From positions 1-43,954 of the forward strand of contig PAHI01000060.1 in the NCBI GenBank assembly GCA_002705575.1: a stretch of DNA of 43,954 nucleotides. Direction: 5' to 3'. The number at the start of each line of letters is the position of its first letter. Positions within the stretch are counted from its first letter, which is position 1. This stretch comes from Fidelibacterota bacterium. GTDB lineage: Bacteria; Marinisomatota; Marinisomatia; SCGC-AAA003-L08; GCA-002719095. The notes under the pieces are model-generated. The model searched no databases, was not told the origin of the DNA, and worked only from the letters and a program-made list of their open reading frames with translations. A program made the position numbers and the translations under genes. This document shows, one piece after another, positions 1-10,166 of the stretch.

Positions 1-1
1 T

Positions 2-157
2 AAATCAGATGAGCCTGAAGCATCATCAACAGAGGATGTTAAATCAGATGAGCCTGAAGCATCATCAACAGAGGATGTTAAATCAGATGAGCCTGAAGCA
101 TCATCAACAGAGGATGTTAAATCAGATGAGCTTGAAGCATCATCAGAAGATGAAAAC
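2..157 (+). repeat. 39-bp in-frame tandem repeat (3 exact copies plus a diverged fourth)
   Basis: Units at 2-40, 41-79 and 80-118 are identical base for base. The fourth, from 119, starts the same but has one substitution (cct to ctt) and then diverges after about 27 bases. The period of 39 is a multiple of three, so it encodes a 13-residue acidic repeat and also leaves a second frame open, which produces a spurious long ORF read-through into rpsR. The array may extend upstream of the window. Confidence 0.95.
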
Positions 158-175
158 AACAAAAAGGAGATATAA
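2..175 (+). CDS. C-terminal tail of a truncated gene, probably ribosomal protein S6
   Basis: Only the 3' end of this gene lies in the window; the frame is open from the first base and stops at TAA 173-175. The visible 57 residues are a low-complexity acidic tail of 13-residue units ([13 protein letters not shown]), three identical and a fourth diverged, ending in ENNKKEI. There is no catalytic or binding motif. Its position two bases before rpsR and upstream of rplI matches the common bacterial order rpsF-rpsR-rplI, so S6 with an acidic C-terminal extension is most likely. A single-strand binding protein is the alternative, since ssb often sits here, but the tail lacks the usual hydrophobic tip (DDIPF type). 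The identity is inferred from position only. The rpsR ribosome binding site AAGGAG lies inside the last codons, so the two are probably translationally coupled. Confidence 0.6.
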
Positions 176-176
176 T

Positions 177-410
177 ATGAGCTTAATAAACAATAAAAAG
201 ATTTGTCCTTTTAAAGAAGATCCTAAATTGATATCAAAAATAAATTATAAAGAATATATGTTTTTGAAAAAGTTTATTACTGAGCAAGGAAAAATTATTC
301 CTAGTTATGTAACAGGGGTATCCGCTAAATATCAAAGAAGATTAGCAAAAGAAATTAAAAAGGCGCGCAATATTGCATTGTTGCCTTATACAAACCTTAT
401 TAGCAAGTAA
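177..410 (+). CDS. rpsR: 30S ribosomal protein S18
   Basis: The 77-residue product is a component of the platform of the small ribosomal subunit, where S18 pairs with S6. The body carries the family signature around [18 protein letters not shown] followed by the basic helix [20 protein letters not shown]. Length is typical. I start it at ATG 177 because a strong AAGGAG lies just upstream (164-169) and the protein then begins like other S18s ([15 protein letters not shown]). The frame is open further upstream only because the 39-bp repeats of the preceding gene happen to be free of stops. The gene lies two bases after the preceding stop and 15 bases before rplI, in one operon. Confidence 0.96.
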
Positions 411-8751: not shown

Positions 8752-9380
8752 TTCTTATAACATACCATCAAGCCATCACGAATAGGCAAAAGAGTATTAA
8801 AAACCCGTGAATCTTTTTGTATATATTGTGCAGTTTTATTCAATATTTTAGAATTAGCATCTTTTGGATTAATAACTTCTCCACTCCAAAGCATGTTATC
8901 TAAAATAATAACCCCTGATTTTTTAACTAGCATAACAACTCTTTTGTAGTATTCTAAATAATTTATTTTATCTGCGTCAATAAAAGCAAAATCAAAAGAA
9001 TTCACCTTAAAACCTTCTATTGTATCTATAGCAGCACCACAATGAACAAATATATTGTTTTCAAGCGATGCCGTTTTTATAAATTTTTTTGCAGTTTTTG
9101 CGTGATCTTTTGCAATTTCACATGTATGAATTTCGCAATTAGGATTATCCATTGCCATGTTAATAGCAGAATAACCTGTAAAAGTACCGATTTCTAATAT
9201 TTTCTTTGCATTTATAGATTTTAGTATTAATTGAATAAAATTACTAACAATAGAGCCTGAAATCATTTGAGGTATTTTTTCATTATTAAATGTATATTGA
9301 TAAATTTCATTTAAAATCTTTGATTCTTGGTTAGAATGTTTAGTACAATATTCTTCAATTTTTTTATCAATAAACTTCAT
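8748..9380 (-). CDS. O-methyltransferase, class I SAM-dependent (caffeoyl-CoA OMT-like)
   Basis: The 210-residue protein is a methyltransferase of the family-3 O-methyltransferases. SAM-binding motif I is ILEIGTFTGYSAI, the acidic motif is CEIAKDH, and the metal/substrate motif is FIDADKINY followed by DNMLWSGEV, as in the divalent-metal-dependent catechol and caffeoyl-CoA methyltransferases. Substrate unknown; bacterial members often act on small phenolics or nucleotides. The gene overlaps both neighbours by 4 bases, indicating translational coupling within an operon. Confidence 0.88.
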   Translation of the reverse strand: MKFIDKKIEEYCTKHSNQESKILNEIYQYTFNNEKIPQMISGSIVSNFIQLILKSINAKKILEIGTFTGYSAINMAMDNPNCEIHTCEIAKDHAKTAKKFIKTASLENNIFVHCGAAIDTIEGFKVNSFDFAFIDADKINYLEYYKRVVMLVKKSGVIILDNMLWSGEVINPKDANSKILNKTAQYIQKDSRVFNTLLPIRDGLMVCYKK

Positions 9381-9634
9381 TTTTCTAGTAGTGTTTTCAA
9401 TTTCCCACTTTGATTTAGCTCAACAAGGCTATCAAACCCTCCAATTGATTTTCCATCGATAATAATTTGAGGAACGGTCATTCCACCTGTTATATCTCGT
9501 AGTTTTTTTCTACTTATACCTTCTTTTTCAATATCAATTTCTTCGTATTTTTGATTTAATTGTGTGAGTAGGTTTTTAGCTAGAGTACATGGATGACACC
9601 AGCTAGCACTATAGATTTTAATTATTTTACTCAT
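9377..9634 (-). CDS. Glutaredoxin (dithiol type)
   Basis: An 85-residue thioredoxin-fold protein. The redox motif is CHPC in SASWCHPCTLAKNLL near residues 13-16, the cis-proline is in GGMTVPQIIIDG and the glutathione-binding tail is IGGFDSLVEL. Length fits a GrxC-like glutaredoxin. It leads a three-gene operon with 4-base overlaps and is divergent from the selenocysteine-type peroxiredoxin, 76 bases away. It is therefore a natural candidate reductant for that enzyme, though this is inference from neighbourhood. Confidence 0.9.
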   Translation of the reverse strand: MSKIIKIYSASWCHPCTLAKNLLTQLNQKYEEIDIEKEGISRKKLRDITGGMTVPQIIIDGKSIGGFDSLVELNQSGKLKTLLEK

Positions 9635-9683: not shown

Positions 9684-9689
9684 TATAAT
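9684..9689 (+). promoter_or_regulatory. Probable -10 box for the peroxiredoxin gene
   Basis: TATAAT, an exact sigma-70 -10 hexamer, lies 21 bases before the start ATG at 9711, in the 76-base divergent spacer with the glutaredoxin gene. No convincing -35 hexamer is visible at 16-18 bases upstream (AAATTA there), and the nearest TTGAAA is too far away. A ribosome binding site TAAGGA lies at 9698-9703, seven bases before the ATG. Confidence 0.5.
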
Positions 9690-9710
9690 CAAATATGTAA
9701 GGATTTAATT

Positions 9711-10166
9711 ATGTTATTAAAAGTTGGAGATAAAGCACCAGAATTCTGTTTGTCTGACTCAGACAACAGTAATATCTCATTATCAGATTTTGAAGGAAAA
9801 AAGGTAGTTCTATGGTTTTTCCCTAAAGCAAATACTCCAGGATGAGTTGTTGAAGGAAAGGGATTCCGTGATGAATTTGAAAAATTTAAAGAAAAAAATA
9901 TGATAATTGTTGGATGTTCTGCAGACCCCCCGTCTAAACAAAAAGTTTTTTGTGAAAAGCAAGATTTACCATACACAATGCTATGTGATGAGGATCATTC
10001 TATGTTAGAGGATTATGGTGTTTGGGGACTGAAGAAGTTTATGGGAAGAGAGTATATGGGCATTTCTCGTGTTACATATATTATATCTGAGGATGGAATA
10101 ATTGAAAAAGTGTATCCTAAAGTCAAAACATCAAATCACGCTCAAGAAATTTTAAATGATTATTAG
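9711..10166 (+). CDS. PrxQ/BCP-type peroxiredoxin with in-frame UGA, probable selenoprotein
   Basis: Reads as a complete 151-residue PrxQ (bacterioferritin comigratory protein) if TGA 9843-9845, codon 45, is decoded. The first part is MLLKVGDKAPEFCLSDSD and FFPKANTPG; the UGA replaces the peroxidatic Cys of the TPGC motif; then VVEGKGFRDEF continues in frame, followed by IIVGCSADPP, GVWGLKKFMGREYMGISR and the family C-terminus. The rest of the frame is undamaged. PrxQ proteins use a second cysteine either five residues on (here Lys50) or about 36 residues on; Cys81 sits at the second position. UGA is used as a normal stop elsewhere (nrdJ, for example), so this is not a reassigned code. A conventional gene caller would report only the fragment from ATG 9900. 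A nonsense mutation or sequencing error is the alternative but would have to hit exactly the catalytic codon. Requires SelA/B/C/D elsewhere in the genome. Confidence 0.85.
9843..9886 (+). promoter_or_regulatory. Candidate bacterial SECIS region after the UGA
   Basis: Bacterial selenocysteine insertion needs an mRNA hairpin just 3' of the UGA. By eye one can pair GGAA (9855-9858) with TTCC (9864-9867) around the loop AGGGA, and, below a small internal loop, TTGTTG (9847-9852) with TGATGA (9869-9874), mostly through G-U and A-U pairs. The loop begins 13 bases after the UGA, slightly nearer than the usual 16 or more. A second AU-only hairpin (AATTT 9874-9878 with AAATT 9882-9886, loop GAA) starts its loop 33 bases after the UGA. 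Neither was computed; bacterial SECIS elements are poorly conserved. Confidence 0.45.

What the first reader, a model, noticed from the sequence alone, without database searches (positions are those of the whole stretch)
9711..10166. PrxQ peroxiredoxin with in-frame UGA exactly at the peroxidatic residue: probable selenoprotein
Seen: one TGA at codon 45 in an otherwise intact 151-codon frame with TATAAT and TAAGGA upstream; homology to PrxQ continues smoothly on both sides (TPG before, VVEGKGFRDEF after). Known: Sec replaces the catalytic Cys in several Prx-like proteins. UGA is used as an ordinary stop in other genes here, so the code is not reassigned. A random nonsense mutation hitting this one codon is improbable. 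Standard annotation would split this into a pseudogene or an 88-residue stub. It implies a Sec-decoding apparatus in this organism.
Basis: partly seen in the sequence, partly recalled or inferred. Interest (0 to 1): 0.88.

Follow-up and report, generated by a model that had tools for sequence, protein, structure and literature searches.

The report
Selenocysteine peroxiredoxin Q in marine Marinimicrobia
This gene from an uncultured ocean bacterium most likely reads a UGA "stop" codon as the rare amino acid selenocysteine at the working centre of a peroxide-destroying enzyme; the kind is already known, but the closest catalogue entries seen here hold it mistranslated or cut short.

Summary
Confirmed. 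Window 9711-10166 (+) is an intact 151-codon prxQ/bcp frame with one in-frame TGA at codon 45, the peroxidatic position (PKANTPG-U). The window is syntenic with Marinimicrobia (SAR406) contigs. The 120 listed catalogue homologues all show Trp there, which first looked fatal. DNA of relatives removes this: in the best 80 genome loci the codon is TGA in 30, TGT/TGC in 50, TGG in none. The "W" is best explained by gene callers reading TGA as Trp on short contigs; elsewhere the gene appears as an 88-109 aa stub. All 31 UGA sequences share a 6-bp hairpin 21 nt after the UGA (186 of 186 cells paired, double substitutions), a bacterial SECIS layout; 2 of 50 Cys loci keep it. Of 22 relatives' genomes (19 UGA, 3 Cys) tRNA-Sec is over cut-off in 20, selA 21, selB 20, selD 20. 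Cys81 at U+36 is a candidate resolving residue, as in Xanthomonas PrxQ. Sec-Prx of the Bcp type (TxxU) is an established selenoprotein family, so this is a new member of a known kind. Not tested: the window's own genome. Against: its own hairpin is thermodynamically weak.

The parts
9711..10166 (+). Sec-containing peroxiredoxin Q (Bcp) gene, 151 codons, stop TAG 10164-10166
9843..9845 (+). in-frame UGA, codon 45, peroxidatic Sec (at Xanthomonas PrxQ Cys48, taking the equally long matched stretches as ungapped, offset 3)
   Evidence: query 14-148 to chain 17-151; that alignment was not printed; PDB titles name C48S and C84S
9861..9878 (+). SECIS-type hairpin: 5' arm 9861-9866, loop 9867-9872 (CGUGAU), 3' arm 9873-9878; 21 nt between UGA and loop
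   Evidence: the isolated hairpin is only -1.5 kcal/mol in the window
9951..9953 (+). codon of Cys81 (UGA position +36), candidate resolving Cys, at Xanthomonas PrxQ Cys84 by the same offset
9684..9703 (+). TATAAT box 9684-9689 and TAAGGA ribosome-binding-like site 9698-9703
   Evidence: seen; not tested for function
9377..9634 (-). glutaredoxin-like gene (85 aa, CHPC), divergent neighbour; possible reductant
   Evidence: TIGR02181 72.7 bits, below its cut-off of 90; neighbour in 7 of 30 UGA loci and 13 of 29 UGA loci (partly the same genomes)

Best explanation
The gene encodes a selenoprotein: a PrxQ/Bcp-class peroxiredoxin of a Marinimicrobia bacterium in which UGA45 is decoded as selenocysteine by SelB and tRNA-Sec, directed by the hairpin 21 nt downstream. 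Sec45 attacks the peroxide and becomes a selenenic acid. In this protein Cys81 probably resolves it as an intramolecular selenenylsulfide, as the corresponding cysteine (Cys84) is taken to do in Xanthomonas PrxQ (recalled), and thioredoxin or the neighbouring glutaredoxin then reduces it. The UGA at the active site, its conservation and swap with Cys, the covarying hairpin and the Sec machinery in relatives are shown here. Decoding in this organism, catalysis, the Sec45-Cys81 bond and the reductant are inferred.
For: Codon 45 in the best 80 genome loci: TGA 30, Cys codon 50, TGG 0 (its 83 rows include 3 second paralogues, all Cys). Within the phylum, 245 genomes searched, 232 with a match, 150 matches listed: 102 hold one TGA and 48 none (hand tally checked; the TGA's place was read only in fetched loci). 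Hairpin: 186 of 186 cells paired in 31 UGA rows against a shuffle mean of 93.1% (0 of 500 reach it), 18 cells changed on both sides, RNAalifold gives the same 6 bp. 30 of 30 UGA loci have 6 of 6 pairs and a loop CG[UG]GA[UC], against 2 of 50 Cys loci with 6 of 6 pairs; 28 of 29 UGA loci have 6 of 6. The third base of Glu55 follows the first base of codon 52 (columns 22-33: UA 24, CG 7, none broken). Machinery in 22 genomes (19 UGA, 3 Cys): tRNA-Sec 20, selB 20, selA 21, selD 20 over cut-off; in the 19 UGA genomes 17, 17, 18 and 17. The 12 best tRNA loci, fetched, are all tRNA-SeC with anticodon UCA. selA with E under 1e-50 is in 88 of 102 UGA genomes and 28 of 48 Cys genomes (Fisher p 2.8e-4, kinship not corrected). 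The nearest genome, G164, has UGA, Cys81 and selA. Fold: AlphaFold2 pLDDT 95.4; best PDB matches are BCP/PrxQ-type.
Against: The window's own hairpin is weak: -1.5 kcal/mol, and 125 of 200 shuffles fold as well; the 50-nt fold prefers another pairing. The published bacterial model asks for -7.5 or lower (PMC13188914), which none of the five isolated hairpins folded here reaches (-1.5 to -7.3). No whole genome is held for the window. 14 of 102 UGA genomes show no strong selA; G011 and G013 carry the UGA but no tRNA-Sec over cut-off, G016 lacks selA and selB over cut-off, G012 has selB only in two pieces under the cut-off, G002 and G020 lack selD over cut-off; incomplete assemblies are the likely reason, not tested. 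The three Cys genomes keep the machinery too, so machinery and UGA are not strictly linked. The tRNA-Sec model also passes its cut-off in 5 of 14 control genomes (which ones is not told), and G019 and G021 pass it only just (48-49 bits against 47). All 120 listed homologues read W and one further one R (P0143).
Confidence: 0.96

Rival explanations
1. UGA encodes Trp here (table 4 reassignment, or a lineage of PrxQ with Trp at this site), so the residue is W and the enzyme is inactive.
For: All 120 listed homologues (of 6321) carry W at this position.
Against: No TGG in 80 genome loci, 50 of which read TGT/TGC. Nine of 37 window ORFs stop at TGA and 137 Trp codons are TGG. The 120 W proteins sit on contigs of at most 2604 bases, whereas relatives on longer contigs are listed as stubs (P0125 567 kb, P0155 20 kb, P0147 and P0150 10 kb, P0126 6 kb). 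Trp cannot do peroxidatic chemistry (established knowledge), while P38, T42 and R120 are invariant in 27 rows.
Confidence: 0.02
2. Pseudogene or sequencing error: a single nonsense change in an ordinary prxQ.
For: A single TGA is all that separates it from an ordinary frame.
Against: The same TGA is in 30 of 80 loci from many assemblies, and one TGA is in 102 of 150 listed phylum matches; the hairpin is kept in UGA forms and in only 2 of 50 Cys loci; the rest of the frame is intact.
Confidence: 0.01
3. Two proteins: UGA terminates, and an 88-aa stub starts at ATG 9900.
For: Standard calling gives it, and such stubs are in databases.
Against: The first 44 residues carry the conserved PxxxT motif and align with the family; a protein cut there would have no peroxidatic residue; the hairpin conservation would be unexplained.
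Confidence: 0.01

Closest known systems
Selenoprotein family 'Peroxiredoxin (Prx)', TxxU: COG1225 (Bcp) in PMC9312934, pfam00578 in PMC2398784 and PMC13188914 (tables seen as passages)
   Same: Same domain family, same TxxU motif (TPGU here); PMC2398784 reports 253 such sequences in 34 GOS samples.
   Different: Nothing found that would take it out of the family; I could not compare it with the example record WP_011365628.1 itself.
Xanthomonas campestris PrxQ (PDB 5iiz, 5ima; C48S and C84S entries)
   Same: Fold (TM 0.89 by the query's length); U45 falls at Cys48 and C81 at Cys84 by an offset of 3.
   Different: Sec in place of the peroxidatic Cys; 29% identity.
PrxU of Eubacterium acidaminophilum (paper seen only as a reference; that NF040737 stands for it is recalled)
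   Same: A Sec peroxiredoxin.
   Different: The NF040737 (PrxU) model scores 42 bits here, far under its cut-off of 270.
Cys-form PrxQ L010, L027, L031 (L027 and L031 Marinimicrobia, L010 an unnamed bacterium)
   Same: Nested in the UGA clade; L027 and L031 keep the 6-bp hairpin (sequences, count).
   Different: Cys codon at 45; likely Sec-to-Cys changes.

Membership tests
Bacterial selenoprotein | In-frame UGA with homology on both sides | tested here: met
Bacterial selenoprotein | UGA aligned with Cys in homologues | tested here: met
   30 TGA, 50 TGT/TGC, 0 TGG in 80 loci
Bacterial selenoprotein | SECIS hairpin: 3-9 nt loop, 4-16 bp stem, G in first two loop positions, 16-37 nt spacing (PMC13188914) | tested here: met
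   6-nt loop, 6 bp, G at position 2, 21 nt; covariation in 31 rows
Bacterial selenoprotein | SECIS free energy -7.5 kcal/mol or lower (same model) | tested here: not met
   -1.5 in the window and -3.8 to -7.3 in four relatives, 22-23 nt hairpins only; the review itself says that a subset of elements fails the model
Bacterial selenoprotein | selA, selB, selC, selD in the same genome | tested here: inconclusive
   own genome not held; each over cut-off in 20 or 21 of 22 relatives
Bacterial selenoprotein | Selenium in the protein | not testable with these tools
   needs 75Se labelling or mass spectrometry
PrxQ/Bcp | Curated BCP model over cut-off | tested here: met
   NF006960 179 bits against 140
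PrxQ/Bcp | PxxxTxxC/U motif | tested here: met
   P38-KAN-T42-PG-U45; motif as in PMC13188914
PrxQ/Bcp | Resolving Cys at +5 or in α3 (+36), or none; class description recalled | tested here: met
   K50, C81 in the window; of 30 UGA loci 15 have C81, 1 has C50, 14 neither
PrxU (NF040737) | Model over cut-off | tested here: not met
   42.4 bits against 270

The most novel reading that the evidence does not exclude
In part of the Marinimicrobia, Sec-PrxQ and a divergently transcribed glutaredoxin form a conserved redox pair, and Sec allowed repeated loss or relocation of the resolving cysteine (C81, C50 or none), giving a glutaredoxin-reduced, partly one-Sec peroxidase that may be a main peroxide sink of SAR406 bacteria.
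Probability: 0.25. Interest if true: 0.45.

Novelty: new member of a known kind. Interest (0 to 1): 0.33.

Why it matters
It is a solid selenoprotein call in an uncultured marine phylum, and it shows how such a gene is lost to annotation: each of the 120 listed catalogue proteins carries Trp at the catalytic site, and others are stubs. A user of such catalogues could conclude that the enzyme is dead or absent. The set of Sec, Cys and resolving-Cys variants can be used to study why Sec is kept or lost.

Tried and rejected
Trp reassignment was taken seriously after and rejected by the DNA of relatives. Folding of the window alone suggested a GGAA/UUCC hairpin 13 nt after the UGA; it is not the conserved one and was dropped. 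Viral contigs: no relative confirmed. Rfam on the window at gathering scores: no match; no tRNA in the window. A scan for other in-frame TGAs in the window listed many frames; by eye those other than prxQ look like antisense or other frames of genes, and none of them was tested against a family library. Only 32 of the 50 Cys loci went into the alignment; all 50 were counted. Paper searches for PrxQ with selenoprotein, and for table 4 with selenoprotein, gave nothing that I used; some searches gave the reviews cited and otherwise nothing that I used.

Full report
Observation. The frame at 9711-10166 is as described: ATG, one TGA at codon 45 (9843-9845), TAG at 10164-10166, with TATAAT and TAAGGA upstream. 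The read-through product is a PrxQ/Bcp peroxiredoxin by Pfam, NCBIfam (BCP model NF006960, 179 bits against a cut-off of 140) and predicted fold (pLDDT 95.4; best PDB matches a BCP, a Burkholderia alkyl hydroperoxide reductase and Xanthomonas PrxQ). TGA is used as a stop elsewhere in the window (9 of 37 ORFs taken) and Trp is TGG (137 codons).

Where it comes from. No whole genome is held for the window. Window ORFs from both sides of the gene lie in the same order in the Neomarinimicrobiota locus L009 (without the M16 peptidase gene that follows here), and parts of that order are in L001, L002, L003, L008, L015, L016 and L019 (L016 has one gene displaced). The tree puts the protein among Marinimicrobia UGA forms, next to L002 with modest support (86/71). 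The nearest of 245 genomes of the phylum is 69% identical (G164); the nearest catalogue protein is 79%.

A result that first spoke against Sec. All 120 listed homologues (of 6321) have Trp at position 45, and all are on contigs of at most 2604 bases. A search with the downstream stub finds, beside these, proteins of 88-109 aa that begin after the UGA, some on longer contigs (P0125, 567 kb; P0155, 20 kb; P0126, 6 kb); P0122 is the window's own stub, listed on 3 contigs of up to 116 kb. The DNA settles it: of the best 80 genome loci (562 were confirmed), 30 have TGA, 50 have TGT or TGC, none TGG. I infer that gene callers using a TGA=Trp code on short contigs made the W; the DNA of those very contigs was not read. 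One further catalogue protein, P0143, shows Arg there.

SECIS. In the 31 UGA sequences (window and 30 loci) a 6-bp stem (alignment columns 19-24 with 31-36) encloses the loop CG[UG]GA[UC]; UGA to loop is 21 nt. 186 of 186 cells pair (shuffles 93.1 +/- 0.9%), 4 of 6 pairs show double changes (18 cells), slid versions reach at most 61.8%, and RNAalifold finds the same pairs. In 32 of the 50 Cys loci 44.3% of cells pair. Counted per locus, 30 of 30 UGA loci have all six pairs and 2 of 50 Cys loci do: L027 and L031 (sequences), Marinimicrobia nested among UGA forms. In the 29 UGA loci (some from the same genomes) 28 have six pairs and one (L106) five; the Cys locus L124 has four. The synonymous third base of Glu55 follows the first base of codon 52, which protein-level selection would not require. 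Against this, the window's own hairpin is only -1.5 kcal/mol and four relatives' hairpins are -3.8 to -7.3; the published model asks for -7.5 or lower (PMC13188914, section 5 read in full).

Machinery. I searched 22 genomes holding these loci, 19 with UGA and 3 with Cys. tRNA-Sec is over cut-off in 20 (G019 and G021 only just), selB in 20, selA in 21, selD in 20; in the 19 UGA genomes 17, 17, 18 and 17. In the 14 control genomes the models pass their cut-offs in 5, 2, 1 and 2. Of the 21 selD matches over cut-off 20 contain a TGA themselves. The 12 best tRNA loci are tRNA-SeC with anticodon UCA. The three Cys genomes keep all four genes. In the phylum, selA with E under 1e-50 is found in 88 of 102 UGA genomes and 28 of 48 Cys genomes among the 150 listed matches (typed lists and test; kinship not corrected).

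Mechanism. Sec45 occupies the peroxidatic site (PxxxTxxU). The usual +5 resolving Cys is a Lys here; Cys81 is at +36, the place of Cys84 in Xanthomonas PrxQ, with which the protein aligns over equally long stretches at an offset of three (residue names from the PDB titles). Cys81 is in 110 of 120 catalogue relatives, but among 30 UGA genome loci 15 have Cys81, 1 has Cys50 and 14 neither. So an intramolecular selenenylsulfide is likely in the window's protein and not general. A divergent glutaredoxin-like gene lies next door in the window, in 7 of 30 UGA loci (some loci have little upstream DNA) and in 13 of 29 UGA loci (partly the same genomes), and beside none of the 50 Cys loci, most of which are from other phyla and so a poor control. 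This suggests, but does not show, a redox partnership.

Place among known things. PMC9312934 (passages) lists Peroxiredoxin, COG1225 (Bcp), TxxU as a known selenoprotein; PMC2398784 (passages) gives 253 Prx TxxU selenoproteins in 34 GOS samples; PMC9402790 (passages) gives Prx as 7.1% of marine selenoprotein genes. It is not PrxU by its NCBIfam model. Searches for selenocysteine with Marinimicrobia, selenocysteine with Neomarinimicrobiota, and selenoprotein with SAR406 returned 4, 0 and 2 papers, of which I read only passages of PMC5029168. The finding is right, well supported and of a known kind.

Noticed in passing
P0002-P0121, P0122-P0168: Listed catalogue proteins of this selenoprotein carry Trp (once Arg) at the Sec site or start after it: mistranslation or truncation on metagenome contigs.
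   Followed up: partly
selD of genomes G001-G022: selD itself holds one TGA in 20 of 21 matches over cut-off; the other, in G018, is a second copy in a 748-aa open frame without TGA.
   Followed up: no
PMC5029168 Table 1 (passages): Three SAR406 genomes are listed as 'orphan SelD' without Sec traits, whereas selA is over cut-off in 175 of 245 genomes of this phylum; incomplete assemblies may explain the listing.
   Followed up: partly
G056-G079: Of these 24 small genomes (0.4-1.0 Mb) 13 are listed with the Cys form and none with one TGA, and none has selA with E under 1e-50, as if the Sec trait was lost with genome reduction.
   Followed up: no
window 1-180: Tandem repeat of about 39 bases at the contig start, just before what look by eye like small ribosomal protein genes; possibly an acidic C-terminal repeat of the preceding gene.
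   Followed up: no
L026, L042: Two Myxococcales Cys-form PrxQ with Cys at +5 fall inside the Marinimicrobia UGA clade, suggesting gene transfer with a Sec-to-Cys change.
   Followed up: no
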